Below are positions 13 to 19,271 of a stretch of DNA of 35,097 nt, piece by piece. A program made the position numbers and the translations under genes. This stretch comes from Candidatus Omnitrophota bacterium (GTDB lineage: Bacteria; Omnitrophota; Gorgyraeia; Tantalellales; Tantalellaceae), in the NCBI GenBank assembly GCA_015231405.1, contig JADGBR010000036.1:1-35097 (forward strand). Direction: 5' to 3'. Position 1 is the first letter of the stretch. Each line of letters begins with the position of its first letter. The notes under the pieces are model-generated. The model was not told the origin of the DNA. It did no database searches and worked only from the letters and a program-made list of their open reading frames with translations.

Positions 13-687
13 TTATGAAACAAATCCGGGTACCCCTTTACGCCTAGGCACCCATCTGCCGGCTTTCTTGCATAATTTTCGTTTAAACTCATCACTACCT
101 ATTATCTCTCGGAATAAACCTTCTTGCCTTGTTTGAAAATTTTCCATTAGAAAATTCAGATATTTTTCTCTTCGTTCTTCGACCGTTTTACCAAATTCGT
201 GGTAATTTCGATCCTCAGTTATAAGTTCATCCGGTTTGCCCAAAATATAATATCCCGCGCTGCTATGCTTGTAATCTTCCGGGCTTTCTACATTCCCAGC
301 ACGCACCGGATTCATTTCTATATATCCTCCGCAGATGATCGAATATTCATTGCTTTCTATAGGCTTCGACGCGAACCTTCCTTGCCATAAATATCCCGAT
401 GTTTTATATTTCCGGTGATAATAGTTTGTATAGCCACGATTAACCCCTCCGATAATAGAAGACATTTTCTCCGGCTCCGGAAATTCTGCTTCGATATGGT
501 AATGATTCCCCATCGTCGAATAATGAAATATCAGTAAATTGCCATTTTTCACATCCCTCATCATTAACTCTTTGTATTTGTAATGATCTTCCTCATCGTG
601 AAATATTTTGAGCTTTCTGTTCCCCCTGTTGTATATGTGGTACATAATCTCATCTTTCAACTGATGATACCTGGCCAATGTCGGCAT
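13..687 (-). CDS. REP-associated tyrosine transposase (RAYT, IS200-like Y1/HUH nuclease)
   Basis: Single-strand DNA nuclease/transposase of the Y1 (IS200-like) family. The start at 687 is chosen because AGGAGG lies just upstream; a longer reading to 756 has no ribosome site. Counted from 687 (224 residues), the HUH motif is H62-x-H64 (MGNHYHIEAE), followed by the typical RAYT stretch SGYLWQGRF and a helix ending YIEMNPVRAG. Candidate catalytic tyrosines are Y115 and Y122. RAYTs are single-copy, domesticated-looking transposases that act on palindromic REP sequences. No flanking insertion-sequence ends were found. The gene is visibly more AT-rich than the genes to its right, consistent with horizontal origin. 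The hairpins near 28.3 kb and 30.9 kb are possible substrates, which is only a suggestion. Confidence 0.92.
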   Translation of the reverse strand: MPTLARYHQLKDEIMYHIYNRGNRKLKIFHDEEDHYKYKELMMRDVKNGNLLIFHYSTMGNHYHIEAEFPEPEKMSSIIGGVNRGYTNYYHRKYKTSGYLWQGRFASKPIESNEYSIICGGYIEMNPVRAGNVESPEDYKHSSAGYYILGKPDELITEDRNYHEFGKTVEERREKYLNFLMENFQTRQEGLFREIIGSDEFKRKLCKKAGRWVPRRKGVPGFVS

Positions 688-881
688 AAACCCTCCTTCT
701 GATCTATATACACACCTACATATATATAGACACCAAAAATGGAGATTATGTTTCAACTTTTTTTATTATTATTTTACATGGCATTGTGGAAGCGATTACT
801 TGCCCGGATTTGTTTTGGAAGTGATTGTTTTATAGATGGTTATACACACTGTCTGCGTGCGAGAGAATTCGCATACATCGG

Positions 882-2836: not shown

Positions 2837-4003
2837 TCATAACATCTCTACCGCTAAAGAAACGGCCGAACCGCCGCCGAGACAAATACTTGTCAAGCCG
2901 ACTTTTTTCTCAAGCTTCTTGAGCGCGCCAAGCAAAGTGACGAGGCCTCGCGCGCCTGAAGCGCCCAGAGGATGGCCGAAAGCTATCGTTCCGCCGAAAA
3001 CGTTAACTTTGGAATGGTCGAGCGCCAGTTCCCGGAGCGTCAAAATGGCCTGCACCGCGAATGATTCTCCTATTTCGAAAAGGTCAACGTCATTAATATC
3101 GATCGAGCTCGCCTTGAGACATTTTCTGACAGCGGCGGCGGCCCCCGTAAATGTAAGAGCGGGTTCGACACCTACCGAAGAATACCCCAGGATACGGGCC
3201 CGGGGGACAAGGTTTAATTCCTTACAGGCTTTTCCTGAAGCTATTATTAACGCGGCCGCGCCGTCGGCCGGAGACGGGGAATTGCCGGGCGTCACCGTCC
3301 CGCCCTCTCCTAAGACAGGTTTCATTCTCGCGAGCGACTCGAGCGACACCGCGGCGTGTTTTTCATCGGCGTCCAGGATCCGATCGGCGCTTATCGCTAT
3401 CGGCACGATCTCTTCTTTAAAATATCCTTTCTCCTGGGCGAGCCCAGCCCTTCTATGGCTTTCCGCCGCGTACGCGTCCTGCTCTCCCCTCGATATCTTG
3501 AACTTTTCCGCGGTACGTTCCGCTGTCCCGACCATATGCTCGCCGTTAAGGCGGCAAAAGAGGCCGTCATTGATAAGGCTGCTCTTCGCTTCGTCCTCTT
3601 TGAGCTTGCCCTCTTTCTCGTCCCATAAGAACAATGAGGGGCATTGCGACGCGCTTTCCGCCCCTCCCGCGATGATACAACCGGCGTCACCGGAGACTAT
3701 TGCCTGTGAAGCCATGATCAGGCCCTTCACTCCTGAACCGCATACCATATCCACCGTGACCCCGGGGACGCCGTGAGGGAGACCTGCCCGGATAAGCGCC
3801 TGCCTCGCGGGGTTCTGTCCCAGCCCGGCGCTTACGGCGTTCCCCAGTATCACTTCATCCACAGAGCCGCCGTCCAGTTTATTGTTTTCGAGAAGTTTTA
3901 GGATAACGGCCGAAGCGAGCTTCACCGCGGAAACATTTTTCAGGGACTTTCCCCGTCTGGCAACGGGGGTCCTTAATCCCTCTACTATGTAAACGTCTTT
4001 CAT
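2837..4003 (-). CDS. Thiolase (acetyl-CoA C-acetyltransferase family)
   Basis: Condenses or cleaves acyl-CoA thioesters, most likely the acetyl-CoA/acetoacetyl-CoA reaction. The 388 residues match degradative/biosynthetic thiolase length. Catalytic residues are visible: nucleophile C88 in DMVCGSGVKG, H344 in FGHPLGASGARG and the second catalytic C374 in CLGGGSA. The usual NEAF water-binding motif is changed to GESF (residues 312-315), so asparagine is replaced by glycine; this may alter rate or substrate. The ATG at 4003 has only a weak ribosome site (GGGA), and the gene lies 33 bp after the upstream enzyme gene, so it is probably cotranscribed. Its metabolic link to the flanking citrate-forming and aconitase genes is not clear; acetyl-CoA is the shared metabolite. 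Confidence 0.94.
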   Translation of the reverse strand: MKDVYIVEGLRTPVARRGKSLKNVSAVKLASAVILKLLENNKLDGGSVDEVILGNAVSAGLGQNPARQALIRAGLPHGVPGVTVDMVCGSGVKGLIMASQAIVSGDAGCIIAGGAESASQCPSLFLWDEKEGKLKEDEAKSSLINDGLFCRLNGEHMVGTAERTAEKFKISRGEQDAYAAESHRRAGLAQEKGYFKEEIVPIAISADRILDADEKHAAVSLESLARMKPVLGEGGTVTPGNSPSPADGAAALIIASGKACKELNLVPRARILGYSSVGVEPALTFTGAAAAVRKCLKASSIDINDVDLFEIGESFAVQAILTLRELALDHSKVNVFGGTIAFGHPLGASGARGLVTLLGALKKLEKKVGLTSICLGGGSAVSLAVEML

Positions 4004-4036: not shown

Positions 4037-5797
4037 TTAGATCAGGTCGTCAAATTTGATATCTATTCCTAAAACACCGAGGATATTTTTCTTCGCGTCA
4101 AGGATCGGCGCCGAAACGGTTATGCAGAGGAGCCCCGTGACCTTGGAAGTATAGAGATCGCTGAAGTATATCACCTTGTGTTTCGCCGCTTCGATGAACC
4201 AGGGCCGGTCGGAGAAATCACCGAACTCGGCCAATTTTTTCTTATACAATTCGACGTCGTTCTTCTGGGTGATGTTCTTCGTTATCTTATTCCCTTCTTT
4301 GTCCGTAGTATAGATAAGCCTGATGAAAGGGTTATCATCCATTATTTTTTCGAAGAAGGACTCCTGTTTCGCCGGGTCCATCGAAACGACATCCGGCTCT
4401 TTCACCATATCAAGGACGATATGGTACGCCAGATCTTTCGCCTTGGCCTTCAAGCCTTCAAGCTCCGAAATGAATAATTCCGGAAGATATTTTTTTGTGA
4501 GCTCTACCATCTCATGGTCCGAGATGCTCGTTATTCTGTTGCTCTTGTATTCGTTAGTGACCCACTCGCTGATCTTCTCGGCGCCGTGATTCTGCTTATC
4601 GATCTTTTTATCGCCCTTAAGGTCGAAAAAGGTGTTTACCCAGAAAACTACGCCGGCTAACCCTGACTTATCCGTTATCCCTACCCCCATGGGCCGGTTC
4701 AACAGCTTCTTGGTATCGAATATATTATAGATCATCTCGTTCTTCATCCCGCCGTCGGCGTGTATACCGGCGCGGGTGACATTGAAGTCGTCTCCCACGA
4801 ACGGATAATTCTTGGCTATGGGTTCCTTGAGCAGCTTTTTGAAATAGTCGCCGATCTCGGTGATAACCGTGGTGTCAACGCCGTTAAACTCCCCTTTCAG
4901 TGAGGCATATTCGATGATCAGGGCTTCTATGGGCGGGTTTCCCGTACGTTCACCGAAGCCCAGAATAGCCCCGTTGGCGGCCGAGCATCCGTACAGCCAG
5001 GCTATCTCGGCGTTAGCGAGTACTTTATGGAAATCGTTATGTCCGTGCCACTCGAGGCATTCCGAAGGCACGCCCCCTTCGTCGATGAGTCCACGTATAA
5101 GCTTCGGAACTCCACGGGGCAGTTTAGCGTTCGGATGCGGAACTCCGTAGCCCAAAGTATCGCAGGCCCTTACCTTAATAGGTATCTTGCTGTCGGCCGA
5201 CCGTTTCATAAGCGCCTGAACGAACGGTATGACAAAACCGTAGAAATCCGCGCGCGTTATATCCTCCAGATGACAACGGGGTATGATCCCTTCCGCCAAA
5301 GCGGCGTCCACTACGCCCAGGTATTCATCCATGGCCTGTTTCCGGGTCTTATTGAGCTTGAGAAAAATATGGTAATCCGAGGCGGACGTCAATATCCCCG
5401 TCTCTTTAAGCCCCAGCTGTTTCACGAGTTTGAAATCCTCTTTCTTCGCCCGTATCCAGCCGGTTATTTCGGGGAACTTTAATCCTAAGTTTCGGCATGC
5501 TTCCACCGCTTCCTTGTCTTTATCACTGTACAGGAAGAACTCCGTCTGCCTTATTACCCCGTTGGGTCCGCCTAGCCTGCTCAAAAGTTTAAAAAGATCG
5601 ACTATCTGTTCCACAGTGTAAGGCGGGCGGGCCTGCTGGCCGTCGCGGAAAGTAGTGCAGGTGATCCAGAAATCCTTAAGCGGTTTAAATTCCGCGCCTT
5701 TTTCATCAAAAGCGGTCCTGGGGATCATATCGTACCTGAAATCCCCGGGGTACAGCTCAGGTTCTTTTACATCGATAAGCGGATAAATTTTTCCCAT
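4037..5797 (-). CDS. Re-citrate/homocitrate synthase-like HMGL enzyme fused to a C-terminal Cache domain
   Basis: Claisen-condensing TIM-barrel enzyme of the IPMS/homocitrate/Re-citrate synthase branch. Residues 45-400 form the barrel: TTFRDGQQA with R51/D52, the metal-binding WHGHNDF with H251 and H253, and the family signature GFGERTGN near 281-287. The sequence resembles what I recall of Re-citrate synthase relatives in anaerobes, and the aconitase in the same operon supports citrate as product; homocitrate or isopropylmalate synthesis is the alternative. Residues about 455-586 look like a Cache (PDC) sensor: DNPFIRLIYTTD, then DRPWF, YTSKVTG and finally GVLGIDI. Cache domains normally sit outside the membrane in receptors; here there is no membrane segment, so the domain is probably a cytosolic ligand-binding regulator. 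The start has AAGGAG five bases upstream, and the gene has its own sigma-70 promoter. Confidence 0.93.
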   Translation of the reverse strand: MGKIYPLIDVKEPELYPGDFRYDMIPRTAFDEKGAEFKPLKDFWITCTTFRDGQQARPPYTVEQIVDLFKLLSRLGGPNGVIRQTEFFLYSDKDKEAVEACRNLGLKFPEITGWIRAKKEDFKLVKQLGLKETGILTSASDYHIFLKLNKTRKQAMDEYLGVVDAALAEGIIPRCHLEDITRADFYGFVIPFVQALMKRSADSKIPIKVRACDTLGYGVPHPNAKLPRGVPKLIRGLIDEGGVPSECLEWHGHNDFHKVLANAEIAWLYGCSAANGAILGFGERTGNPPIEALIIEYASLKGEFNGVDTTVITEIGDYFKKLLKEPIAKNYPFVGDDFNVTRAGIHADGGMKNEMIYNIFDTKKLLNRPMGVGITDKSGLAGVVFWVNTFFDLKGDKKIDKQNHGAEKISEWVTNEYKSNRITSISDHEMVELTKKYLPELFISELEGLKAKAKDLAYHIVLDMVKEPDVVSMDPAKQESFFEKIMDDNPFIRLIYTTDKEGNKITKNITQKNDVELYKKKLAEFGDFSDRPWFIEAAKHKVIYFSDLYTSKVTGLLCITVSAPILDAKKNILGVLGIDIKFDDLI

Positions 5798-5950: not shown

Positions 5951-6331
5951 TCAGGCCTCGATACCCAAAGCGCCCTTGACCTGTTTCATGAGAGTTGTTA
6001 TGGAGTAGGGTTTCGTAAGATAAGAGTAAACACCGAGCCTGCTGATATATTCTACCTCGAACGGCTCATCTTTGGCGGAAAGAACTATGACGGGTATCCC
6101 CCTGGTATCGTCGCTTTTTTTGAGTAAAGACAGCAGGTCGCGACCATCAAGTTCCGGCATGGTTATATCCATGACTACAAGATCGGGATTTTCGCGCTTT
6201 ATTACGCACATCCCGTCTTTGCCGTTATAGGCGAAACTTACATCGAACCCCCTGGGTTCCAAAAACGACTTGAGAGCCCCCACAAGGTCTTTCTCGTCGT
6301 CGATAAGCGTTATTTTAAATATCTTATCCAT
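5951..6331 (-). CDS. Single-domain response regulator (CheY-like receiver)
   Basis: A 126-residue receiver domain with no output domain. The acidic pair D11/D12 (IDDE), phospho-acceptor D55 (VVMDITMP), switch residue S85 (VLSAKD) and K107 (TKPYS) are all present, so it should be phosphorylated and signal by protein contact. Its start codon overlaps the stop of the 50-residue membrane peptide gene by one base (TAATG) and has no ribosome site of its own, so translation is probably coupled. No histidine kinase is encoded in the window, making it an orphan here. The operon promoter at 5855-5882 lies just downstream and separates it from the metabolic genes. Confidence 0.94.
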   Translation of the reverse strand: MDKIFKITLIDDEKDLVGALKSFLEPRGFDVSFAYNGKDGMCVIKRENPDLVVMDITMPELDGRDLLSLLKKSDDTRGIPVIVLSAKDEPFEVEYISRLGVYSYLTKPYSITTLMKQVKGALGIEA

Positions 6332-6553: not shown

Positions 6554-9500
6554 TTACAGCGAGCGCACTACCTCCGTCTCAGCTTTAAAGCATTCGGTGA
6601 TAACGTTGAAATCTATCTTGTTTATCGGCGGAAGCTCTATCTGGAATGTTTTACTGATGAAAAGGTCCGGGTCAGTTTTACGGGCCAGCTCCATAAGATC
6701 TTGGGCGACAAGCGGGTTATTAGTCACGACGCCGACGCTTTTCGCCCACGCATAGAACACGCCCCGGTAAGACTCGTCGGTCATCATCTTTTCAGCGGTC
6801 ACCCCGGCCCGTTTACTTGACTCGATATAGTCAGCCAAGTTAAATTTCATGAGCGCCTCGATGGCCAGCCTCCCGTAGGGGAGCGCCACCTGAAGTTTCT
6901 CGCCTTCCGGGCCGTCCTGTACGTCGTTTGTTATGATATTCAGCATGGTGCGTTTACCAAGCTCTTCTTTCAGCGTCGCGAGATCCGTGATATTGAAACT
7001 TTTGAGCTCGGCGATGAACACCCCATCGTCCCGAGAGTTAGCGGCCATGATCCCCGCTATCGCGTCAAGGGCGGCCGTCCCTATGGTGAACCTCGTCCTG
7101 TAAACTGCTTTGACATCCCCTTTATTGAGCGCTTCCAGGATCATTTTTTTCGCGTCATCGATCCCAAGCCCGAATCGCATCATAACGTTCCTTAACCCTC
7201 TTTTCGCCAGAAAAGAATCCATGGCGCTCCGTACCCCGGTCTTCAATGATCTCAAGGTCTCGTCCTCTATCCCCGTAGGTTCAAGGCCCACGACATAGGC
7301 GTCGCATTCCGTTCTTCCGTCGAACAGTTTCCCCTGAAGCGCCTTATCGATCACGCCGCCTAACTCCTTCATATCACGCTTTATCGTTTCAATCATATTC
7401 TCGGCTCCGGCGCCTTCCGGGGTTAAAGTCCCCCCGGCCTGACAATTTACAACATCACCGAAAGTGACTTGAGGACGCGGGACAGCCGCCATAGCGGGCG
7501 CGTTCCTGGATATCGCCCGTGAACGTGCCGATCCGCGTGACGATATCCTTCCATAAACGGAAGCGACGGGCACCGTAAAATTATCCCAATCCCTTCGATC
7601 ATAAGCCCTCTTTAAACTTATGCCTTGTTCGCCGTAAGAAGCCTCGGCTATACCCAGCTTCCTTAAATAATCGATGTAAAACGAAGTTGATCCGTTTTCG
7701 GCCGGTATGGTCGCTTCGGATAAACCGCCAGCGAAAATTTCCGTAAAAAAGACATCCATGAGAAACGTCCCTATGCCTTTGCCCTTTTCATCGTTCATAA
7801 CTCCTAACTGACTCAGATTACCGCTTCTGTTCGTCGAGGACATCCTGAACATCCCTTTAATATCTCCCCCTTCGGTCACATACAAAAAAATCCTTTCGGG
7901 ATTGTTACCGCCCAGGGTTTTAAAAGTACTCATCATTTCCGATACCATCCTGTCAATCGAGTTAAGATTAAGCCACGGCTTGATCAGCGCGACCTGCTTC
8001 GCGAGAACGGCAATCGTTTCTTCGTCGTTCTTTAACAGATCGACCAGGGTTTTAGCGTTAATCGCGGCTCCCCCTCCCGGACGGATATACGCGGCGCCTG
8101 TCGCGTACAAAGAGCCCGTCAGATCTTTAAGGGTTCCGAGAGAGCGCTCATCGGATATCGCCGGAACGGCCAAAGCGGGTGCCGGGGTCCTACGCACTGC
8201 CAGTGGTTTCCCGACCGGAATTTTCGTTTTATCTAAAGCCTCTCCCTTAAGAGTGACGACAGGGTCTATGCCCAGCCGGTGCAGGTTGACCAGAAATTCA
8301 GGCGACTCATAGGATATGGAAAACTGCCGCGCCGCCTGTTTACTAACGGTCCATAGATGCATACGTATAAGGAGTAGCGTCGTTCTTTCCAGACGGGTAA
8401 GCTCCATACCCAGCGATCTTTTCGCAAAAGCGTCCGCCAGGTATTCTTCCAGACGTTTCGGGTACTTTATCCGCTGTTTCCCCAATATTTGGTGCAGAAG
8501 CTCGTGAGCGTGCACAAAACCCGTCACCTTATGCCTGTCCTTCCTTGTATCCAGTCCGGGCGCGATCAACGCGACAACTTTCTTTGCCGAGGCGACATCA
8601 ATGGTTATCTCATCCGTACGCGGGTCATATCTGCCGTATTCGACACCGCCGCGCTCAAGCTGTTTGGTCCGGGCTTCCTCCTCGGCCCCCGGCAAATATT
8701 TACCAACCTGTTTCATGACCTCTACCTCAGCCCTCGCTATCAGCCCCATCATGGCGGCGCGCTTCTCTTTATCCTGGAGGAAAGCCGCCTTAGGCAATAA
8801 CGCCGCGGCCGCTTTCAGCACGGATGGCATGCTTTTCAGATCGTTCGAATCAAGTATCGAACGCATCGCATTTATGAGCCCTACTGTCTTTTCATACACC
8901 TCGCTCTCTTCTTCCGTGTTTAGAAGGACCTTTATCTCGATCGATCTCGCATTGTCCTTTTCCATCCCTTCACGGATACTCCGAAGCGCCGAAAGAATTC
9001 CGTCGAATGTTTCGGATTCGATCGGAAGGCCTATCGCTTTTGATATCAGGGCGGCATATGTTTTATTCTTCAACAGTTCCCTGAGTTTTGCGCAAATGTC
9101 ATCCGCTATCGCCATGAATTCCCCGTCGACCGAGATAACGGCTTCGGTCAGTCTCACCTTTTTCTTCTTTTCCTCTACTTTCTTCGCGGGCTTCTCCTCA
9201 TCTATTCCTATTAAAGGAGCCGTTTCATGGACTTCGGCCGGAACGGCTTCGCGCATTATATCGCCGAAATTCCCGGCAAGCCGCTCTATTACACTGTCCA
9301 GTATGTCTCCCGCCGCGCCTATAAGCCTGAAGAGAGACATGAGCTTGTCCGGAAGGGCAACGTCCACGCGATCGAACGTCTGGAAGACCTTGAGAAGCCT
9401 TTGTATAGTGCTCCCAGCCTTGAGATCTATCCCGGAAAGCAGTTTACCAAGCGCGTCCTTGTCCAGGTCGGGCATGAACCGTTCCGCCCAACCGACGATC

Positions 9501-12500
9501 CCCTGTTTGTCGTCGCCGCGTATAAGGCGTATCAGATTCGCTAGCTCCCCAAGAGTGGCGAGATCCGTTTCCGCCGCCGCGCCAAGATCGATAATATGGC
9601 AATGCACGACCCCGTCCTTAAGCTCGACGAAAATATTCCCGACATGCGGGTCGGCGTGGTAGAAATTATCCACCACCATCTGGCGCAAGAGTTCCACGCC
9701 AACGGCTTCTTTAATGAGGTCGGGATCCATACCGGCGGCCCTCACCTTATCGGGTTTGGACAGGGGTATTCCGCTCGCCATATCCTCAATCATCAGAGAT
9801 TTCTGTTTCATTTTTTTATCGGCTACCTCTCCCGCCACCGGAGTATCGAACTTTATTTTTATCTCTGTCCCCACAAGCGTCTTCGCGGCCTCGGCGAAAA
9901 GCTGATTCCTTATATCCTTTCCGGAATTGGCCAGGGCCAGATTCTTCGATACCCTGTCCTGGTTCCTGGCCTCCAGGTCGAAATCCAACTCATCGTTAAC
10001 GATAGCGCTTATGCGTTTCACAATATTCCTTGGCAGCTGTATCCCTATCGCATTCAGGTCGGATCCCACCTCGCCAAGCACGGTCTCCAGGAAAGCAAGG
10101 TCCGCTCCTATCCGCTTATCGATATCCGGCCTTTTTATCTTCAGGACTTTTTCTTCTCCGGTATCAAGCTTTACCTTGAATACGCATTTTATGGAACCGC
10201 TGCCCAAAAGCGGCCCCAGCTCGCTGAACTTGTTCTCGAACTTGACGTATATCTTCTCTATCATGTCGAAAACAACGCTCCTTGGTATCGGCGGAGCCTT
10301 GTCCTTGAGTTTTCCGAGCTCTTCGCGAAGTTTCACAGGCACGCCTTCCATGGAAGATATGAACTGCCCCAACTTTATCCCGACAAGCCCGAGCGATTCG
10401 AAGAACGCCCTGAAATACATGGCCTGTTGAGTGACAGTATCGGTCACCTTCTCGGAATCTATTCTGGACATATTACTGACCAGCGCGAGGAACAGGCCTT
10501 CGCGCCTCGAGTTATCGGCGTTCCTGAAAGTGCTTGTGAAAACGGCTTCGAGCGCCTTCCTCGCGTTTTTTTCGACGCCGCCGTCATTAGGGCATACCTT
10601 CGCGAAAATGGCCTTTACCATACCGTCGAGCGCTTTATCGTCCGAAAGCACGCCATTCTCGCCTGAAAGGAGCGTGCCGAGGAATTCGCGTCTCGCGCTT
10701 ATCCCTATATTTTTGTAATGTTCGGTCTCAAGCCCCGTAAAAGCGTCCCTTAACCCGTTAAGGTTCACCTGGTAACGGCTCTCGAAGTTTACGAAAAGCG
10801 AAGGCTTGGAAGGACTCATCTTGAAGAACCACAATAAAAGCTCGGCCTTGCTCTTCGCGTCAAAGGTAGACAGGTAAGACCCAAAAGCATCCAGATAGAA
10901 GGTCTTTTTCGCCTGGGCTTTATGCCTTATGTTCTCCGGGGCGTTAAGAAGAAGCTTTTTGACCTCTTTCATCTCTTCGGGGTTCTTTACGGGGATATTC
11001 AAAAGCAAGTCGTCCCTGGTATAGGAAAATTCCGGCAGGTATTTCCCGACCCAGCCGAGCCATCCGTCAAGTGTCTTAAAATCCTCCGGACTCTTTGCCT
11101 GCCTCTTTTCAAGGATCATCACGGCGTATTTTTCGCGTAACAGGGGATTTTTGATCCGGGCGAGGACTATATCCTCCAGGGCCCCGATCTCAAGTTCGCC
11201 GGAATATTTGTCGAGTATATCCACAAGATACCTGTCCCTGTACGCCGAATCGTGGGGCATGATCTTGAGGACGGTTCCGAGCTTTTCCCCGGCCGGCGAG
11301 GAGGAACCCATTACATTTTCAATATGCCTCGAGAGAAGAAGCGGCACGAACGCGTCCATCTGGGAAAGCGGCCCCCCGAGTTCCGCGTATTCGATCTGAG
11401 TGTACGAAGCGTGGGTTTCTTCATAATCCGCGAAATACACGGACTTTTCCTGGGTAAAAGCCCTAACTATTTCGTTTATAGCCGGCTCAAGCCATGAGAT
11501 GTTGGCTCTTTCCGCGTCTTTGTCCCACGCGAGAAGAGGCGCTATTTCGGCGACCGCCTTTATTACTTCCGCCCGTCCGGGTTCGTCAAGCTTGGCTATG
11601 GCTCCCTGAATCTTAACGAGATCGAAGTAATCCTTTAACCCCAGCTTCATCTTTAGTTTCTCACGAAAAACGCTTTCTATTATGAACGCGTAGAGGGTGA
11701 AATTGCGGAACGGACTCGCGGGCATGTCGTTGACTATATCCTCAACGGTCTTCTCTTTTAAATATTCCCCGAAAAATTCCATTACCATCTGTGTGTTCGT
11801 CGTCGGACCGACCCTCGCTGTCCGCTTTCCCCCTGTCGTAACCTCATCGTATTCCGTCTGGACATTGCCCGGGTCAAGGAACCTGCCGAAACAATAGGTT
11901 TTTGTGCTATCACCTTTGCCGTCCTTTACCAGCGCGTGAGCGACGGCCTTATCATACGAGGCGTACAGGGACACAAGAAGAACATATCTATCCCAGGCCT
12001 CTTCCCTGCCCGCGTCATCCTCGGAGTCAAAACGAGGGACTATTGACGAACGCATTTCGGGCGTTTTCATGAGGGATACCAGGAATTTAGCCTGAGGACC
12101 GTCTTTTTCCGGCGACATTTTCTGTACAAGCTCGAAAAGCCGGTTCTCTTCGGGTATGACCCCCCTCACGAGCAGGAACGCCATGCGTTTCCAAAAAGCC
12201 CCGGCTTCGCCGTCTTTTGCTATTATGTCCGCGGCTTTGTCAAGCTCTTTGGACGATAGGGCGAGGACATCTTCCGCAATTCCCCGATATGATCTTTTGA
12301 GCGTTTCCGTGAGCGGCAACTGTTTAAGAGATTCTAACCCGATCTCCATAAGGTTGAAATACCCGTCCTCATCAAGGCCGTATTTTCCCGAAATGGCTTT
12401 AAGCCACTCTACGGGTTTTTCGGGGAAGACATGCCGCGCAAAATAAGCGTTCTTTAAGAGCTCCCTGAGGTCCCCTTCCCCGCTCGCTTCTTCTGCCTGG

Positions 12501-15500
12501 AACAAAAGCTGGATATCCCCGGGATTGCTTTCATATGTCTGGAGCAAAATGGCGAAGAATCCGTCCTTTATCCCGTTCCTCCCGGTCGAAATCAACCCGA
12601 ACTTCTTTTTTAGTTTTTCTTCGGGGCTCATTTCCCGTTTCGCCGACATTACCCCGCGGGAAAGCCAGCTTCTAAGCGCATCGCTTATCTCCGGATCTTT
12701 ATTATTACACGCATAATCGAATAAGGCCTTGGCCGCTCCTCCGTTCAGAGTTTCTTTCAGGCCCGTAGAACTGTCATGCTCGTTAAGCCACTCAAGCCCG
12801 GAGAGGATCCTTTCGAGACAGGCTTTTTTCTCCCCATTTTTTATAGCCCCTCTCTCCGCATCCATTAATATCCTTATGGCTATCATATATTTTTGCGCGA
12901 GCGAATCGATAACGGCTTTGGAGTTTATCTTCCCTTCGCTGCATGATTCAGCCTGGGACAGGAACCTTTTATAATTATCGAGAAAATCCAGCAGTTTCCC
13001 GATACTCGGTGAAACATCCCTGAGAAGCGCCGGATCCACGACATTGTAATGGAACCACGCGATAAAAGAGGAATAATCTGTCGGAGCGAGATATTTCCAG
13101 TTCTCCTTCTTCGTATTCTTGTTTCCCGTGAACGAAAGAGGGAACGGGAGGTCGACCGAAAGCACGGATATGAGGTCCTCAAAACTCATCTCCTTGAGTT
13201 TATTCCCTACAGGCGTGTTCACGAGCGCCCGGCTGCCCATACCCGCTCCGGCCAGCCCGTCCTGAAATGTTTTGGCGTTTATATCATCCTCGACGAAAGC
13301 GAGGAAGATCCCGTAAGCGACCTCCCTGACGGGATCTTTCCCGGCGTAGTTCCATGCTCCGGAGGCTATATTTGAAAGTTTTTGTTTAGGAGCTCCGTAT
13401 ACTGGCCTCCCAATGTTATTCGTGTAAAGCGAGGCTATGTACTCCTCGATCGACCGGGCACGCTCGGCTCCGGGCGCCGGGGTCCCATTCACGAGGTCTT
13501 CCTGGAATTTTCTGTGCCTCCCGGATCTTTTTGCCTGGGCGGCGGCGTTCTCCGAAAAGGCCTCGTCATCCTTGAAATAGTTGCTCCAGAAAATATCGTT
13601 TATGGCCGGCCTCAGTTTCCTTATGCGGTCGAGCGTTTGGGGATGTGTTTTGCTCCACGCGAGAAAAACGTCCGAGTCTTTGTTCTCCTCAAGTATCTCG
13701 AAGAAAAGAAGGGCATTCCTCACGCTGAACCCGGCGGAGTCCACCATGGCCAGAGCGTTATCGGCGTCATATTCGTTCGGGTGGTCGTCGACCATCGAAA
13801 CCGGTCTCCCTTCGATAATATCGTCCACCCATTGGGCAACATGCCTGATCTCATGCGCCAGGACAAAAGCGACGGCGTTCTTCGAGTTCTCTTTCTCGAG
13901 CACCCAGTTGATGAGGCCCCTCGAGACAAAGACACGGTTGGTATATCTCATCACATAAGCCTTGGGCATGTCCGTATCCAGAAGTTCCAGCGAGAACTCA
14001 CTGGGGTCATAACCTTCGGCGGCAAGAAGCCTGTCCAGGATACCCCGCGTTTCGCCGTAAATGTCATCATATTCAGCGTCGTTCTTATCGATGAACCGGT
14101 CCTGAGAAGAAAGCATCTTGAAATAGTCGGCGAAATTATCCCCCAGGGACATGACGCTTTCTATCCGCTCCTCTATCTCCTCATATCTGACGCTGTCAGC
14201 CTTTTTCCAGGAGGCAATATCCCCGGCGCCGGTGGTGGAAAGTATCCTTTCATGTATTCTTTTCTTTATCCAGTCTTTGTCCATCCGGAAAGCTTCGTCC
14301 CTTTCTCTCCGTCCGTTAAACAGCCCCTTATCCACTCCGGTCTCGGCCGGCCTTTCGCATACGACAAAATCGCCCGTACGCTTGTAAAGTTTTACGCCGT
14401 ATTCCGTTATGGCGAGAGCCATCGTTTTATCGGAAAGCGCTTTGACCAGTTCGTCAAACGCTTCACTCTTCTTGACGAGCTTGACCGACGCCACGCCATC
14501 CTCATACTCTGTGGTATATTCCCAGAATTTCATGCTTGGCCTGAACCTGCCCGCGTTCACCCCGAGATCATCTATATCGATCCACGTTGAGACCATGCCC
14601 GTTAAGAAATATTCCCTGGCCAGCTCGGCCGCACGTCGTCCGGTATAATATCTCACTTCTTTCCCTTTATCCTCGGGGTGAGATAGGACTTCGAATTCAT
14701 CGGATGGAGCCGACTGCGACAACCCTGTCTGGAGAACGACCCTTGCACCGGTTTCAGCTTCTCTCTGCTTGTTTTCCATGTTCTTATGCGTCAGGTTATT
14801 ACGCACCTGCAATCGCTCGGAATCTCTCTTCCTTTGCCCGGCTTCGAACTCTTCGTCGCTCCTCCTTTGGTACTCATCATAATCGTCCCTATCCATCCTG
14901 TGATCCCTGTCCGAACCCTGCCCCAGCCGGATGCCTTTGGCGCGGGCTTTCGCGATAATATCCTTCGGCGCCAAAGAGACGTTCTCGGCATGGCTTAAGC
15001 CGTAAGCGGCCCCGACTTCGTGGACTATTATCCGTGCAAATCGGGCTCTGTCCGGTAGCGCTTCCGGGTTCACGTATATGGCGTCAGCGCCTGGATGCCC
15101 CTCTATCCCAAGCCCGAGGGAGGAGTCCCAAACCCGAATATTTTCTTTCAATATGAAATTTATGTCGTCATCCGAAATGCCGAGCCCGGAAAGCGCTAAT
15201 TCAAGGCTTTTTATATCCTCGCCCTTCCCTTCGCCGAAACGGTGCGCGCCTACCTTTTTTCCGACCGTATCTATCCACACTTCCTGCTGTTCCCAGGTCA
15301 TGGCGTCGCCGTCCACGAGGACCGCTTTCACATCCTCGTAAGTTACCCCGGCAGGCAAGGCATTTACAAAGACCCCCGCTTTCCATTCGCCGCTCCCGAA
15401 AACGGCGTCCGCGCCTTCCGGTATGTCGTTCTTTGTTATCAGGATCGCCGCGCCGTTAGTAAGACGCAGCCAGTACCCTTCTTTCGCACCAGGGGAGTCC

Positions 15501-17206
15501 GCGAACAGTTTTGTAATTATATCCACCTCAAGGCCAAGCTCGTTCACCGCTTTTATGTCGTAAAATCCCATTTCGGAAAATAGCGACTTGATGGCAAGGT
15601 TCGACCCGCCTATGGCGGCCCTTATGCCCTGCGCCATCAGGCTCTCTATCCCATTATTTTCACCCGAGAGAAGGCTCTGATACGGGGAAGGCATATTTCC
15701 TGTCTTGAACTTCGGCATGATGCCGACATAAGAGTACCCCTCTTTCCGGAACAGCTCCGACAGATTAGCGGTGTGGAATCCTCCCGTCACCAGGATCGTG
15801 ACTTTTTTCCCGCGGGAATCCAGGCGATCGGCTATATTCGCGACGAAGGCATCGTCCCTTTCCACAGAACATGTAAAGAACTCCTCTATCCTGGCGCGGT
15901 CCCCGTCAAGATGGCCGATCGACCCGTCGATACTCACGGATAAACCGTGTAGCGGAGCTTTATTGTTCACGAAATCGATAAAACGGTCCGCCATGAAATC
16001 ATCGCGCCGGGACATATAATCGTCGAAATCCTCTTTCACCAGAGATATGGAGAACATGCCTTTTATGATGGACAGGTCTCTGTAAAGCCCTATAAGGGCT
16101 CTCTCGTCATCGTTCACCGCCAGATTTTCGTATACAGCCGCCTCGACGGCTTTCATGTCACGCATGATCAGGTTTTTGTCGATACCTTCGTACTTCTCCA
16201 GATAGGCCGAGTATTTAGCCAGGTCCGGGAACGTCGCGAGATCCACACCGCTGAAAGCGGCTTTTTTAAAGAGATACCCGTAAAAAACGGTTTTCTCTAT
16301 CTCTCCCGACCTGAATAAGGCCGTTTTTTCCGCGAGTTCCGCAATATCGTTCTTAGACGCTTTTTCTCCTATCTTGTCCACAAGGACGGACCGTTCCTTT
16401 TCGGCCTTACCGAAATCTATCGCTTTTTCATCAACCAGCGTTCCCAGAAGGATTTCGACGTTCTTATGCCCGGCAAGATCTATTCCGAGGTGCGCCGCTA
16501 TCGCCCCTAGATACAGGATATATTCCTTAAACTCGATACTCCCGTCTTTATACGAACGGACCTTATCGTCAAAAACCGCGAGTTCGGCGCCATAGAACTT
16601 CCCTTTCATGGCCGTCAAAGCGGCATCTATTTCCGCAAGGGACTTTTCGATTTTTTCATTGTTCGAGTGAGAGCTCAAGTATGCGTTCAGGTTCTTTTCA
16701 TATAACGCCTCGTCCTCTATTCCGAACAACTCGACTTTTAACGGATTATTAATGGCGTAAAATTCCGGACCGGTCATCCGCCCTTCCCTTACAAAATAGT
16801 CGCTGACTTTTCTGCGCAGGTCGGGACTGTTTATGGATGTGAATAACGACAGATCGTAACTTCCTTTACCGCCCTCAAGGGATATCTGGTCGATATCTCC
16901 ATAGTTAGTCACAATATGGCCGATAATACCCGCTATAGCATTCTGGGCGGCATAGTTGCAGTGTGCGTCCTGGATATGAATAATGGTCTTGGTGTTATTC
17001 CCTTTCATTGACGTTTTTATCTCGCCGAGGCTGGCTGGAATGATCAGTTCCTCCAAGGAGAACGATTTTGACACCATCGTCCGGGGCAAAAAGACCTTGC
17101 CCCTGCCAAATTCTTCCGAAAAGGTTATGGGAACCGATGAAACAGAGAAGAAAAACAGAGTTAAGGCTGTAATTGTTTTTTTTATCATATTGTTATTATT
17201 ATTCAT
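6554..17206 (-). CDS. Giant exported multidomain protein (UbiB/ABC1 kinase, zinc-peptidase-like sites, GNAT)
   Basis: A single uninterrupted 3550-residue frame. Residues 1-30 look like a Sec signal (KK, then a run of L/F/S/V). Residues 45-530 (IIHIQDAHCNYAAQ, ISLEGG, VTGGFHTANL) resemble the ChaN/TraB/Tiki fold, tentatively. H729-H739 reads HEVGAAYGLSH, a metzincin-like site lacking its second histidine. A charged linker follows at 755-815. An M48-like site is at 1118-1145 (HEIRH, then EYDAD). About 1200-2240 is helical and unassigned. A UbiB/ABC1 kinase fold spans about 2265-2640: KLGQ at K2278, loop GSGS 2335-2338, HADPHVGN 2517-2524 and IIDLG. A Lys-rich linker lies near 2674, a second zinc site HELLH at 2901-2905, a GNAT motif GKGIG at 3142-3146, and an unassigned C-terminus from 3220. 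A 5-bp hairpin touches the start codon; no ribosome site is seen. Confidence 0.92.
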   Translation of the reverse strand: MNNNNNMIKKTITALTLFFFSVSSVPITFSEEFGRGKVFLPRTMVSKSFSLEELIIPASLGEIKTSMKGNNTKTIIHIQDAHCNYAAQNAIAGIIGHIVTNYGDIDQISLEGGKGSYDLSLFTSINSPDLRRKVSDYFVREGRMTGPEFYAINNPLKVELFGIEDEALYEKNLNAYLSSHSNNEKIEKSLAEIDAALTAMKGKFYGAELAVFDDKVRSYKDGSIEFKEYILYLGAIAAHLGIDLAGHKNVEILLGTLVDEKAIDFGKAEKERSVLVDKIGEKASKNDIAELAEKTALFRSGEIEKTVFYGYLFKKAAFSGVDLATFPDLAKYSAYLEKYEGIDKNLIMRDMKAVEAAVYENLAVNDDERALIGLYRDLSIIKGMFSISLVKEDFDDYMSRRDDFMADRFIDFVNNKAPLHGLSVSIDGSIGHLDGDRARIEEFFTCSVERDDAFVANIADRLDSRGKKVTILVTGGFHTANLSELFRKEGYSYVGIMPKFKTGNMPSPYQSLLSGENNGIESLMAQGIRAAIGGSNLAIKSLFSEMGFYDIKAVNELGLEVDIITKLFADSPGAKEGYWLRLTNGAAILITKNDIPEGADAVFGSGEWKAGVFVNALPAGVTYEDVKAVLVDGDAMTWEQQEVWIDTVGKKVGAHRFGEGKGEDIKSLELALSGLGISDDDINFILKENIRVWDSSLGLGIEGHPGADAIYVNPEALPDRARFARIIVHEVGAAYGLSHAENVSLAPKDIIAKARAKGIRLGQGSDRDHRMDRDDYDEYQRRSDEEFEAGQRKRDSERLQVRNNLTHKNMENKQREAETGARVVLQTGLSQSAPSDEFEVLSHPEDKGKEVRYYTGRRAAELAREYFLTGMVSTWIDIDDLGVNAGRFRPSMKFWEYTTEYEDGVASVKLVKKSEAFDELVKALSDKTMALAITEYGVKLYKRTGDFVVCERPAETGVDKGLFNGRRERDEAFRMDKDWIKKRIHERILSTTGAGDIASWKKADSVRYEEIEERIESVMSLGDNFADYFKMLSSQDRFIDKNDAEYDDIYGETRGILDRLLAAEGYDPSEFSLELLDTDMPKAYVMRYTNRVFVSRGLINWVLEKENSKNAVAFVLAHEIRHVAQWVDDIIEGRPVSMVDDHPNEYDADNALAMVDSAGFSVRNALLFFEILEENKDSDVFLAWSKTHPQTLDRIRKLRPAINDIFWSNYFKDDEAFSENAAAQAKRSGRHRKFQEDLVNGTPAPGAERARSIEEYIASLYTNNIGRPVYGAPKQKLSNIASGAWNYAGKDPVREVAYGIFLAFVEDDINAKTFQDGLAGAGMGSRALVNTPVGNKLKEMSFEDLISVLSVDLPFPLSFTGNKNTKKENWKYLAPTDYSSFIAWFHYNVVDPALLRDVSPSIGKLLDFLDNYKRFLSQAESCSEGKINSKAVIDSLAQKYMIAIRILMDAERGAIKNGEKKACLERILSGLEWLNEHDSSTGLKETLNGGAAKALFDYACNNKDPEISDALRSWLSRGVMSAKREMSPEEKLKKKFGLISTGRNGIKDGFFAILLQTYESNPGDIQLLFQAEEASGEGDLRELLKNAYFARHVFPEKPVEWLKAISGKYGLDEDGYFNLMEIGLESLKQLPLTETLKRSYRGIAEDVLALSSKELDKAADIIAKDGEAGAFWKRMAFLLVRGVIPEENRLFELVQKMSPEKDGPQAKFLVSLMKTPEMRSSIVPRFDSEDDAGREEAWDRYVLLVSLYASYDKAVAHALVKDGKGDSTKTYCFGRFLDPGNVQTEYDEVTTGGKRTARVGPTTNTQMVMEFFGEYLKEKTVEDIVNDMPASPFRNFTLYAFIIESVFREKLKMKLGLKDYFDLVKIQGAIAKLDEPGRAEVIKAVAEIAPLLAWDKDAERANISWLEPAINEIVRAFTQEKSVYFADYEETHASYTQIEYAELGGPLSQMDAFVPLLLSRHIENVMGSSSPAGEKLGTVLKIMPHDSAYRDRYLVDILDKYSGELEIGALEDIVLARIKNPLLREKYAVMILEKRQAKSPEDFKTLDGWLGWVGKYLPEFSYTRDDLLLNIPVKNPEEMKEVKKLLLNAPENIRHKAQAKKTFYLDAFGSYLSTFDAKSKAELLLWFFKMSPSKPSLFVNFESRYQVNLNGLRDAFTGLETEHYKNIGISARREFLGTLLSGENGVLSDDKALDGMVKAIFAKVCPNDGGVEKNARKALEAVFTSTFRNADNSRREGLFLALVSNMSRIDSEKVTDTVTQQAMYFRAFFESLGLVGIKLGQFISSMEGVPVKLREELGKLKDKAPPIPRSVVFDMIEKIYVKFENKFSELGPLLGSGSIKCVFKVKLDTGEEKVLKIKRPDIDKRIGADLAFLETVLGEVGSDLNAIGIQLPRNIVKRISAIVNDELDFDLEARNQDRVSKNLALANSGKDIRNQLFAEAAKTLVGTEIKIKFDTPVAGEVADKKMKQKSLMIEDMASGIPLSKPDKVRAAGMDPDLIKEAVGVELLRQMVVDNFYHADPHVGNIFVELKDGVVHCHIIDLGAAAETDLATLGELANLIRLIRGDDKQGIVGWAERFMPDLDKDALGKLLSGIDLKAGSTIQRLLKVFQTFDRVDVALPDKLMSLFRLIGAAGDILDSVIERLAGNFGDIMREAVPAEVHETAPLIGIDEEKPAKKVEEKKKKVRLTEAVISVDGEFMAIADDICAKLRELLKNKTYAALISKAIGLPIESETFDGILSALRSIREGMEKDNARSIEIKVLLNTEEESEVYEKTVGLINAMRSILDSNDLKSMPSVLKAAAALLPKAAFLQDKEKRAAMMGLIARAEVEVMKQVGKYLPGAEEEARTKQLERGGVEYGRYDPRTDEITIDVASAKKVVALIAPGLDTRKDRHKVTGFVHAHELLHQILGKQRIKYPKRLEEYLADAFAKRSLGMELTRLERTTLLLIRMHLWTVSKQAARQFSISYESPEFLVNLHRLGIDPVVTLKGEALDKTKIPVGKPLAVRRTPAPALAVPAISDERSLGTLKDLTGSLYATGAAYIRPGGGAAINAKTLVDLLKNDEETIAVLAKQVALIKPWLNLNSIDRMVSEMMSTFKTLGGNNPERIFLYVTEGGDIKGMFRMSSTNRSGNLSQLGVMNDEKGKGIGTFLMDVFFTEIFAGGLSEATIPAENGSTSFYIDYLRKLGIAEASYGEQGISLKRAYDRRDWDNFTVPVASVYGRISSRGSARSRAISRNAPAMAAVPRPQVTFGDVVNCQAGGTLTPEGAGAENMIETIKRDMKELGGVIDKALQGKLFDGRTECDAYVVGLEPTGIEDETLRSLKTGVRSAMDSFLAKRGLRNVMMRFGLGIDDAKKMILEALNKGDVKAVYRTRFTIGTAALDAIAGIMAANSRDDGVFIAELKSFNITDLATLKEELGKRTMLNIITNDVQDGPEGEKLQVALPYGRLAIEALMKFNLADYIESSKRAGVTAEKMMTDESYRGVFYAWAKSVGVVTNNPLVAQDLMELARKTDPDLFISKTFQIELPPINKIDFNVITECFKAETEVVRSL

Positions 17207-17456: not shown

Positions 17457-19271
17457 ATGGATAATGCCCGCGTTTTGCAAGTCGTACGGAATGTTCTGTC
17501 GAACCTTAAAAAGATGGTACTCCTGGCGTGGAGGATGGACAAAAAAACCACGCTCGCTTACTTCGCATTCTCAGCCCTGACATCCGTTTTCCCGATAGCC
17601 ACGATGTTCACTCTCAAGTATCTGATAGACAGCATCATGATGACCGATATTCCCGTCACCGGGAATATCCCTATTGTCCTCGCGGCGGTCCTGGCAACCA
17701 GGTACGTAATCGTGCTCCTGGATAAGTACATTACCACCGGGCTTTTCAACGCATTCTATGACACAATTTTCCGCTATAAGCTCCAAAGCGAACTTTTTTA
17801 CAGGTTCTCGGAGAAATCGGCCGATCTTGATATCCCTTACCTCGAGGACGCTGACTCTCAAAACCTTATCACAAAGGCCAGGGAAGGACTTTTTTCGAGA
17901 CCGCCGGAATTCCTCAGACAGTCGTCACTGATGTTCGGCGCCCTCTTTTCGTGGTTAACAGCCTTTTTCGCTCTCGTCCCGTTCGGCATTCTGATCCCGA
18001 TCGTTCTCACTCTGTCGATAACTCCGCGGCTTATACTCAGGCTCCGCCAGGGAGAGATCCTGTGGACCATGTATTCCACCGTCATCCCTCAAACTAAGAT
18101 CTTTTATTCGCTGAACGGCCTTTTCAATTCCATCCCCTCTCTACTCGAGATGAAAATATTCAGGTCAAAGACGATGCTCCTCGAAAAGCTGAAAAGCATC
18201 CAGGATTATTTGTACCGCCAGGCCAGCGGCACGATACTTAAATATCTTAAGCGCCTTCCTCTCCCGACCATCCTGGAAACTTCGGTGCTTGTCGCCTTCG
18301 CCTTTTTAAAACTGCCGACTCTCCTTGCCGGGGCCATCACCCTTGGCGCGTTCACTTTGTTCATCAACCTCATAGACCGCTTCAACGTAAGCGCGATGAC
18401 GATGGTCAGCACTCTCGGTTACATGTACGAATATAATCTCCACGTCAACGATTATTTCAACGTGATAGAACTCCCAAAGCTCATCAAAGAACGGGATAAC
18501 CCCGTGATATTCAAGGACCTCGCCCCTCCGAAAATAGAGTTCCGGAACGTGAGCTTCGCCTACAAGGGCGGCCCCAAGGTTCTTGACGGCGTCTCGTTCA
18601 CGATAGGCGCGGGCGAGAGCATCGCACTGGTCGGGGCCAACGGCGCCGGAAAAACGTCCATAGTAAAGCTCATATGCAGGTTCTATGATGTGACGGATGG
18701 CGAGATACTCATTAACGGTGTGAACATCAAAGACCTTAAATTATCTGAATGGTACAGATTTTTGGGCACGCTTTTCCAGGATTTTGTTAAATATCATCTC
18801 ACCGTAAGGGAGAACATCCTGTTAGGCGACCCGCATAAATCCGACGACGAGCTTATGCGAAAAGCCGCGTCCAGATCAGGGGCAGATGAGTTCATAGAGA
18901 AACTTCCCTCCCAATATGACCAGGTCCTCGGACGCGAATTCGAGAACGGAACGGAGCTGTCAATAGGCCAGTGGCAGAAGCTGGCGATAGCCCGGGCTTT
19001 CTACCAGGAAGCTCCTTTCCTCATCCTGGACGAACCGACGAGCGCCATAGACGCGATAAGCGAGTACGAAATATTCCAGAACATAGAAAAGGTATATAAG
19101 GGAAAAACCCTTCTGCTCATATCACACAGATTCTCCACAGTCCGGAACGCCGACAGGATATTCGTCATAGAGAACGGACGGATAACCGAGAGCGGGTCCC
19201 ACGAGGAGCTTCTTACTTCGAACGGGCAATACGCTGAAATGTTCAGGCTGCAAGCGCTCGGTTATCAGTAG
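17457..19271 (+). CDS. ABC transporter half-exporter (fused permease and ATPase)
   Basis: A 604-residue type IV ABC exporter subunit in the inner membrane, expected to work as a dimer. Hydrophobic helices occupy about residues 25-320 and the ATPase about 345-600. Motifs: Walker A GANGAGKTS (393-401), Q-loop LFQDF, signature LSIGQ (501-505, Ile replacing the usual Gly), Walker B D525/E526 (LILDEPTSAID), and H557 in ISHRFSTV. The LSIGQWQ variant is common in exporters of peptides and unknown substrates; the substrate cannot be named. It stands alone on the plus strand, divergent from the giant gene, without a peptidase domain or accessory protein. A heptamer-repeat hairpin follows its stop and faces the convergent flotillin gene. 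Confidence 0.95.
   Translation: MDNARVLQVVRNVLSNLKKMVLLAWRMDKKTTLAYFAFSALTSVFPIATMFTLKYLIDSIMMTDIPVTGNIPIVLAAVLATRYVIVLLDKYITTGLFNAFYDTIFRYKLQSELFYRFSEKSADLDIPYLEDADSQNLITKAREGLFSRPPEFLRQSSLMFGALFSWLTAFFALVPFGILIPIVLTLSITPRLILRLRQGEILWTMYSTVIPQTKIFYSLNGLFNSIPSLLEMKIFRSKTMLLEKLKSIQDYLYRQASGTILKYLKRLPLPTILETSVLVAFAFLKLPTLLAGAITLGAFTLFINLIDRFNVSAMTMVSTLGYMYEYNLHVNDYFNVIELPKLIKERDNPVIFKDLAPPKIEFRNVSFAYKGGPKVLDGVSFTIGAGESIALVGANGAGKTSIVKLICRFYDVTDGEILINGVNIKDLKLSEWYRFLGTLFQDFVKYHLTVRENILLGDPHKSDDELMRKAASRSGADEFIEKLPSQYDQVLGREFENGTELSIGQWQKLAIARAFYQEAPFLILDEPTSAIDAISEYEIFQNIEKVYKGKTLLLISHRFSTVRNADRIFVIENGRITESGSHEELLTSNGQYAEMFRLQALGYQ

What the first reader, a model, noticed from the sequence alone, without database searches (positions are those of the whole stretch)
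6554..17206. A 3550-residue exported protein that joins kinase-, peptidase- and acetyltransferase-like domains
The sequence shows one unbroken frame with a Sec-type signal, a UbiB/ABC1 kinase fold, two intact HExxH zinc sites, one degenerate one, and a GNAT motif. Kinase and GNAT domains need ATP and acetyl-CoA, which are cytosolic, yet the N-terminus predicts export. That conflict suggests either a new cofactor use, an N-terminal anchor with a different topology, or loss of catalysis. Such giants are reported in Omnitrophota-like genomes, but I know of no function for this combination.
Basis: partly seen in the sequence, partly recalled or inferred. Interest (0 to 1): 0.8.

Follow-up and report, generated by a model that had tools for sequence, protein, structure and literature searches.

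The report
Exported multi-enzyme giant protein family
This gene is one of roughly 40 giant genes in a single Omnitrophota genome that all start with the same exported enzyme domain and mostly end with the same C-terminal domain but carry different, often cytosolic-type enzymes in between, which makes them candidate tools for acting on other cells.

Summary
The 3550-aa open frame is real; it lies on the MINUS strand (17206 to 6554) and is unbroken. The UbiB/ABC1 kinase domain (E 2e-29) and an M48 metallopeptidase (E 1e-8) are firm. GNAT is borderline. The second HExxH is a motif without a significant family match. The 'degenerate' HExxH is a motif conserved in paralogues. After the signal the protein has a ~470-aa TIKI/EreA/ChaN-fold domain (AlphaFold pLDDT 89) with the superfamily's H-E-R-H residues at canonical spacing, and it ends in a ~135-aa C-terminal domain. 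About 38 genes of this genome start with the same domain. Complete ones mostly end with the same C-terminal domain, while their middles differ: 171/171 pairs share the N-terminus, 22/171 share anything in the middle. The family takes at least 8.4% of the genome. The N-domain occurs in 143 of 285 Omnitrophota genomes. The signal-M48-UbiB kinase core recurs in five other genomes with kinase residues retained in 11 of 12 homologues, so neither misassembly nor loss of catalysis is supported. Best explanation: Sec-exported multi-domain giants whose ATP-dependent modules act outside the producer, most plausibly in a host or prey cell. Delivery and activity are inferred, not shown.

The parts
17117..17206 (-). 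Sec-type signal (residues 1-30)
   Evidence: Only hydrophobic segment of the protein, KK before it; similar signal in nearly all paralogues with an intact 5' end
15653..17056 (-). TIKI/EreA/ChaN-superfamily domain (residues 51-518), shared N-terminal domain of the family
   Evidence: AlphaFold pLDDT 88.9; Foldseek EreC, BcR135, ChaN, HopBA1; H82-E111, R450-H478
14942..15610 (-).
   Evidence: Conserved in paralogues L053 and L062 and, at the motif, L041
13577..14080 (-). M48 metallopeptidase domain (1043-1210), HEIRH at 1118, third ligand in EYDAD
   Evidence: Pfam PF01435 E 1.2e-8; HExxH kept in 11 of 11 homologues
10520..11746 (-). Region preceding the kinase (1821-2229), conserved with the ABC1 domain
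   Evidence: Full-length 751-aa matches in G185, G036, G313
9497..10453 (-). UbiB/ABC1 atypical kinase (2252-2570): IKLGQ (KxGQ) 2277, GSGS loop 2335, K2356, E2406/E2412, HADPHVGN 2517, D2540
   Evidence: PF03109 E 1.9e-29; motifs invariant in six paralogues
8306..8518 (-). Second HExxH region (HELLH at 2901, EEYLAD downstream), possible metallopeptidase
   Evidence: Motif; PF06114 E 0.3, below cut-off
7673..7909 (-). GNAT-like acetyltransferase region (3100-3178), KGKGIG at 3141
   Evidence: PF13673 E 8e-4, below the curated cut-off; in no other ABC1 giant of this genome
6557..6970 (-). Conserved C-terminal domain of the family (3413-3550), ending ETEVVRSL-COOH
   Evidence: Leave-one-out HMM E 8.8e-9 at the exact C-terminus; 27 convincing loci in own genome

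Best explanation
The gene encodes one member of an Omnitrophota-specific family of exported, modular giant proteins with two conserved ends. Proposed working: (1) the Sec signal takes the chain out of the cytoplasm [shown at sequence level only]; (2) the TIKI-fold N-terminal domain is a hydrolase (peptidase or esterase) at the head of the protein [fold and catalytic residues shown, activity inferred]; (3) the C-terminal domain, which seems to need a free C-terminus ending in [SA][LAV], serves targeting, outer-membrane passage or surface docking of the giant forms [conservation shown, role inferred]; (4) the exchangeable middle is the payload, here an M48 metallopeptidase, a UbiB-like kinase with all catalytic residues, and perhaps a second metallopeptidase and a GNAT, which works where ATP and acetyl-CoA exist, i.e. 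inside or in open contact with a host or prey cell [inferred].
For: About 38 own-genome loci share the N-domain. All 171 pairs of 19 complete members match there, only 22 match in the middle, some modules at different positions. Leave-one-out recovery of the C-terminal domain in 22 of 26. In other genomes 34 of 41 N-domain frames end in [SA][LAV] against 34 of 301 other frames; the seven exceptions look broken, truncated or gap-containing. Six stand-alone N-domain proteins (518-561 aa) are signal-headed but lack the C-terminal motif, while three 10-12k-aa giants have it, so the C-domain goes with the giant payload. The M48-ABC1 core recurs in five other genomes, signal-headed in at least four members. 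Kinase residues retained in 11 of 12. Payloads elsewhere in the family are ATP-, SAM- or sugar-phosphate-dependent. Literature: Omnitrophota are predicted host-dependent or predatory with giant ORFs of unknown role (PMC10066038); open cytoplasmic contact between predator and victim reported for Velamenicoccus (PMC13153191); a TIKI-fold domain is an effector in MARTX toxins (PMC6254334).
Against: No secretion system, receptor or immunity gene was linked to the locus; neighbours are ordinary metabolic and signalling genes. No RTX repeats, pore or translocation domain seen. The ATP/ADP translocase marker gave no hit in this genome, though that search rang in no control either. The C-domain has no recognisable fold match. 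Nothing shows the protein is expressed, leaves the cell, or is active.
Confidence: 0.42

Rival explanations
1. Periplasmic or surface-bound envelope protein: M48 and TIKI domains do proteolytic quality control or remodelling of the producer's own envelope, and the UbiB-like and GNAT-like domains are nucleotide- or lipid-binding scaffolds rather than working kinases.
For: Canonical UbiB proteins act in lipid/quinone metabolism, and ADCK3 is inhibited as a protein kinase and prefers ADP (PMC4718504); M48 peptidases often act at membranes (own knowledge); neighbouring genes are housekeeping; diderm secretins and TolC-like proteins present.
Against: Catalytic residues kept in divergent homologues; a family of about 40 with exchangeable middles is unusual for quality control.
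Confidence: 0.25
2. Polyprotein: the exported chain is cut by its own TIKI and M48 domains into separate mature enzymes, so the giant is only a precursor.
For: Two to three protease-like domains inside the chain; the N-domain exists as a free-standing 518-561 aa protein in other genomes.
Against: No cleavage linker was recognised (not searched systematically); the C-terminal domain stays attached to very different middles.
Confidence: 0.13
3. The signal is not used: the protein stays in the cytoplasm, where ATP and acetyl-CoA are, and the N-terminal hydrophobic stretch is a membrane tether or a mis-called start.
For: All cofactors are cytosolic; the signal is modest (peak hydropathy 1.64 over 19 residues).
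Against: Signal-like N-termini with cleavage-like motifs (e.g. AWA-G, ALA-E, AHA-Q, AYA-Q) occur in nearly all intact-5' paralogues and in homologues lacking the TIKI domain; positive charge before the stretch predicts export.
Confidence: 0.1
4. Misassembly or frameshift joined separate genes.
For: The genome is a draft in 93 contigs, and some other family genes are broken at assembly gaps.
Against: Same domain order in four paralogues with the TIKI head and in G236; M48-ABC1 order in further genomes; the window frame has no gap or stop.
Confidence: 0.02

Closest known systems
TIKI / EreA / ChaN / TraB superfamily (EreC, BcR135, ChaN, HopBA1, MARTX effector RRSP)
   Same: Predicted alpha/beta core with strands around a long helical insertion; H82-E111 and R450-H478 at spacings 29 and 28, as H50-E78 and R261-H289 in EreC (28, 28; PMC7979712) and H3902-E3930, R4001-H4030 in RRSP (28, 29; PMC6254334)
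   Different: First Glu of the 2His/2Glu motif is Gln here (Q79); Pfam ChaN matches only 2 of 32 members, weakly; large helical insertion; heads giant proteins
UbiB/ABC1/COQ8 (ADCK) atypical kinases
   Same: KxGQ, beta3 Lys, ExD, HADPHxGN and metal-binding Asp present
   Different: Sits at residue 2250 of an exported 3550-aa chain; Ala-rich AAAS loop replaced by GSGS, with Gly at the position equivalent to ADCK3 A339, whose Gly mutant gains ATP preference and autophosphorylation (PMC4718504)
Omnitrophota giant ORFs (Velamenicoccus 39,678-aa protein and others; PMC10066038)
   Same: Phylum, giant size, predicted export, unknown role, suspected symbiosis/predation
   Different: Reported examples are adhesin- or carbohydrate-rich with many transmembrane helices; here one signal, no further TM-like segment, enzyme payloads and two conserved ends
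MARTX toxins and polymorphic toxin systems
   Same: Conserved ends with exchangeable effector modules between; TIKI-fold domain among the modules
   Different: Sec signal, TIKI domain fixed at the N-terminus, no RTX repeats, no cysteine protease domain, no immunity gene; not filed as a member

Membership tests
TIKI/EreA/ChaN superfamily | Alpha/beta core fold | tested here: met
   AlphaFold pLDDT 88.9; among the best Foldseek matches are EreC 6xcs (prob 0.60), 2rad/3b55, HopBA1 5t09, ChaN 2g5g. E-values 0.2-2.3 are weak singly but point to one superfamily
TIKI/EreA/ChaN superfamily | Catalytic His-Glu ... Arg ... His | tested here: met
   E79, R418, H446 of A1 invariant and H50 above 90% in 32 paralogues, spacing as in EreC and RRSP
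TIKI/EreA/ChaN superfamily | Second Glu of the 2His/2Glu motif | tested here: not met
   Gln at the EreC E47 position; an adjacent Asp is conserved
TIKI/EreA/ChaN superfamily | Hydrolase activity | not testable with these tools
   Needs assay
UbiB/ABC1 kinase | PF03109 above cut-off | tested here: met
   103 bits against cut-off 22.9
UbiB/ABC1 kinase | KxGQ, beta3 Lys, ExD, HxDxHxGN, DxG | tested here: met
UbiB/ABC1 kinase | Ala-rich loop | tested here: not met
   GSGS instead of AAAS
UbiB equivalog (ubiquinone biosynthesis) | NCBIfam TIGR01982 cut-off | tested here: not met
   126 bits against 487.6
Peptidase M48 | HExxH plus Glu ligand in ExxAD, PF01435 | tested here: met
   35.5 bits against 20.3; HEIRH...EYDAD
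GNAT acetyltransferase | Pfam cut-off and Q/RxxGxG/A loop | tested here: inconclusive
   19.8 bits against 23.6; KGKGIG present
MARTX / polymorphic toxin | RTX repeats, autoprocessing protease, or C-terminal toxin with downstream immunity gene | tested here: not met
   None in Pfam scans of the protein or neighbours; variable part is in the middle, not at the C-terminus
Omnitrophota giant ORFs | Giant ORF in Omnitrophota | tested here: met
   All 79 loci kept of N-domain relatives in the genome collection are Omnitrophota records. The reported 20-kb threshold is not met by this 10.7-kb gene; the largest of the relatives listed is 12,701 aa

The most novel reading that the evidence does not exclude
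An undescribed class of exported multi-effector proteins in Omnitrophota: a TIKI-fold hydrolase head, exchangeable ATP-dependent payload, and a C-terminal targeting domain read from its free end, delivered by an unknown route into host or prey cells; about 40 per genome, at least 8% of its DNA.
Probability: 0.3. Interest if true: 0.88.

Novelty: new variant of a known kind. Interest (0 to 1): 0.68.

Why it matters
Giant ORFs in Omnitrophota have been called functionally opaque because they share few annotated domains. Two conserved ends give a handle: they define a family across half of the sampled genomes, separate payload from head and tail, and make the question testable (does the head-and-tail pair export a chosen payload, and to where?). 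It would also add exported UbiB-like kinases, for which I know of no precedent.

Tried and rejected
Profile search of the N-domain against PDB sequences returned troponin/calmodulin; rejected as a helical-composition artefact, since the matches fall in the helical insertion and the TIKI structures came up by fold. Pfam on the N-domain members gave only scattered weak hits. The single-sequence genome-contig scan found nothing; the alignment scan worked. C-domain fold search: no meaningful match; NCBIfam on C-domains: only scattered single hits. Plasmids: none; viral contigs: one locus (L186), probably a mis-binned chromosomal piece, so not treated as a viral gene. TLC ATP/ADP translocase: no hit, but uninformative because the control rang nowhere. 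Mis-framed or over-long queries failed. Considered and dropped: peroxisomal-type SKL targeting (residue order differs, no peroxisomes), OMP C-terminal signal (no aromatic end), assembly artefact.

Full report
WHAT IS IN THE WINDOW. The 3550-codon frame at 6554-17206 is real, uninterrupted and on the minus strand. The window is the whole of contig 29 of a 3.66-Mb draft genome, 96% complete. Pfam finds ABC1 (2299-2570, E 1.9e-29), Peptidase_M48 (1056-1125, E 1.2e-8) and a sub-threshold GNAT (3102-3178, E 8e-4); a second HExxH at 2901 has only a sub-threshold M78 hit. HExxH would be expected 0.04 times by composition, and two are present. The 'degenerate' HEVGA at 729 is a conserved motif of a module (533-755) shared with at least two paralogues, HE[VLI]xx-x-Y...H..N, not a decayed HExxH.

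Residues 51-518 match about 38 other places in the same genome at 24-44% identity over most of their length, nearly always at the start of a long frame (up to 8035 aa), the rest being fragments at contig edges. An alignment of 32 of these gave an AlphaFold model with mean pLDDT 88.9. Foldseek against PDB returned, among weak matches, EreC, BcR135 (twice), HopBA1 and ChaN, which the literature groups as one fold, the TIKI/EreA/ChaN superfamily (PMC7979712, PMC6254334). The E-values are poor, probably because of the ~300-residue helical insertion, so I tested the active site. The nearly invariant or invariant residues are H82, E111, R450 and H478 (window numbering), at spacings H-29-E and R-28-H. 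EreC has H50-E78 (28) and R261-H289 (28); RRSP has H3902-E3930 (28) and R4001-H4030 (29). The second Glu of the 2His/2Glu motif is Gln here. I take fold and site as supported, activity as untested.

THE TAIL. Complete family members end alike even when their middles are unrelated: a strand-like stretch, a P-h-[DN] turn, a helix, and a C-terminus [SA][LAV]. Leave-one-out HMMs recovered 22 of 26 proteins at the exact C-terminus, the window protein at E 8.8e-9. A scan of the genome found 27 convincing loci plus one weak hit. In other Omnitrophota genomes 34 of 41 N-domain frames with a 3' end end in [SA][LAV], against 34 of 301 other frames; the exceptions look broken, truncated or gap-containing. 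The six stand-alone N-domain proteins examined (518-561 aa) have a signal but no such tail, while three 10-12k-aa giants have it. The tail therefore goes with the giant payload, not with the N-domain. Its model is all-helical with moderate confidence (pLDDT 75) and matches no known fold.

THE MIDDLE. Among 19 complete members all 171 pairs match in the head and only 22 match anywhere in the middle, several with modules at different positions, e.g. L046 1942-2180 against L054 644-905. Middles include Ser/Thr kinase, phosphoglucomutase, PRK/uridine kinase, SAM methyltransferase with ARMT1-like phosphatase, HSP90-type ATPase, AAA_5, FHA, SecA-like and WD40 modules. The family occupies at least 309 kb, 8.4% of the genome (truncated members included).

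THE M48-KINASE SUBFAMILY. Four paralogues (L040, L042, L044 and the window) have head-M48-ABC1-tail; two more are partial or headless (L043, L039). G236, another genus of the same family, has the full order in 3942 aa; G036, G114, G185 and G313 have related cores. Several headless members are still signal-headed (L039, L181, L182, L183). The kinase residues (KxGQ, beta3 Lys, ExD, HxDxHxGN) are essentially invariant in the six own-genome members and kept in 11 of 12 homologues over six genomes; L183 has lost the lysine, and some members vary at the DxG glycine. The UbiB Ala-rich loop AAAS reads GSGS here. By the pattern G-T-G-S of PKA, the Gly before Ser stands at ADCK3 A339, whose Gly mutant gains ATP preference and autophosphorylation (PMC4718504); this is a suggestion from alignment only.

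DISTRIBUTION. 143 of 285 sampled Omnitrophota genomes carry the N-domain (only the best five candidates per genome were scored, so per-genome counts are lower bounds). A conserved-peptide scan of the GTDB contigs confirmed 217 places; all 79 loci kept are Omnitrophota, including Ca. Omnitrophus magneticus and Ca. Aadella gelida. None in plasmids, one in a viral-contig collection, probably mis-binned.

HOW IT MOST LIKELY WORKS. Shown: two-ended architecture, signal-like start, conserved catalytic residues, exchangeable middle. Inferred: export by Sec, cleavage, outer-membrane passage with help of the tail, action on another cell. The inference rests on the cofactor argument (kinases, methyltransferases and GNAT need cytosolic cofactors), on expansion and module exchange typical of conflict proteins, and on published evidence that members of this phylum are predators or parasites with giant proteins (PMC10066038) and that Velamenicoccus has open cytoplasmic contact with its victim (PMC13153191). 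Main weakness: no linked export or immunity gene and no experimental data. The envelope-maintenance and polyprotein rivals remain open.

VERDICT. I found no earlier description in the library searched, which lacks preprints and most subscription papers, so prior description cannot be excluded.

Noticed in passing
window 4040-5797 (-): HMGL-like domain (46-316) fused to a C-terminal PDC/dCache sensor-type piece (478-585) in one 586-aa frame: an unusual combination.
   Followed up: no
window 17457-19268 (+): ABC transporter gene (NBD at 376-529 of 604 aa) divergent from the giant gene; not known whether it is functionally linked.
   Followed up: no
window 5954-6331 (-): Single response-regulator receiver domain directly downstream of the giant gene on the same strand.
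   Followed up: no
own-genome giant tails scanned in alignment A7: Signal-headed giants also contain SecA_DEAD and SecA_PP_bind domains and WD40 propellers; which member carries the SecA-like module was not resolved.
   Followed up: partly
L187-L192: Stand-alone signal-headed TIKI-type proteins of 518-561 aa in other Omnitrophota, without the C-terminal domain.
   Followed up: partly
L186 (IMG/VR contig): N-domain relative (41% identity) in a contig classed as viral, probably mis-binned.
   Followed up: no
L064, L048, L049, L055: Several family genes of this draft genome are interrupted by N-gaps or contig ends, so the gene count is a lower bound.
   Followed up: partly
window 16-756 (-): IS200-like (Y1) transposase at the contig edge.
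   Followed up: no
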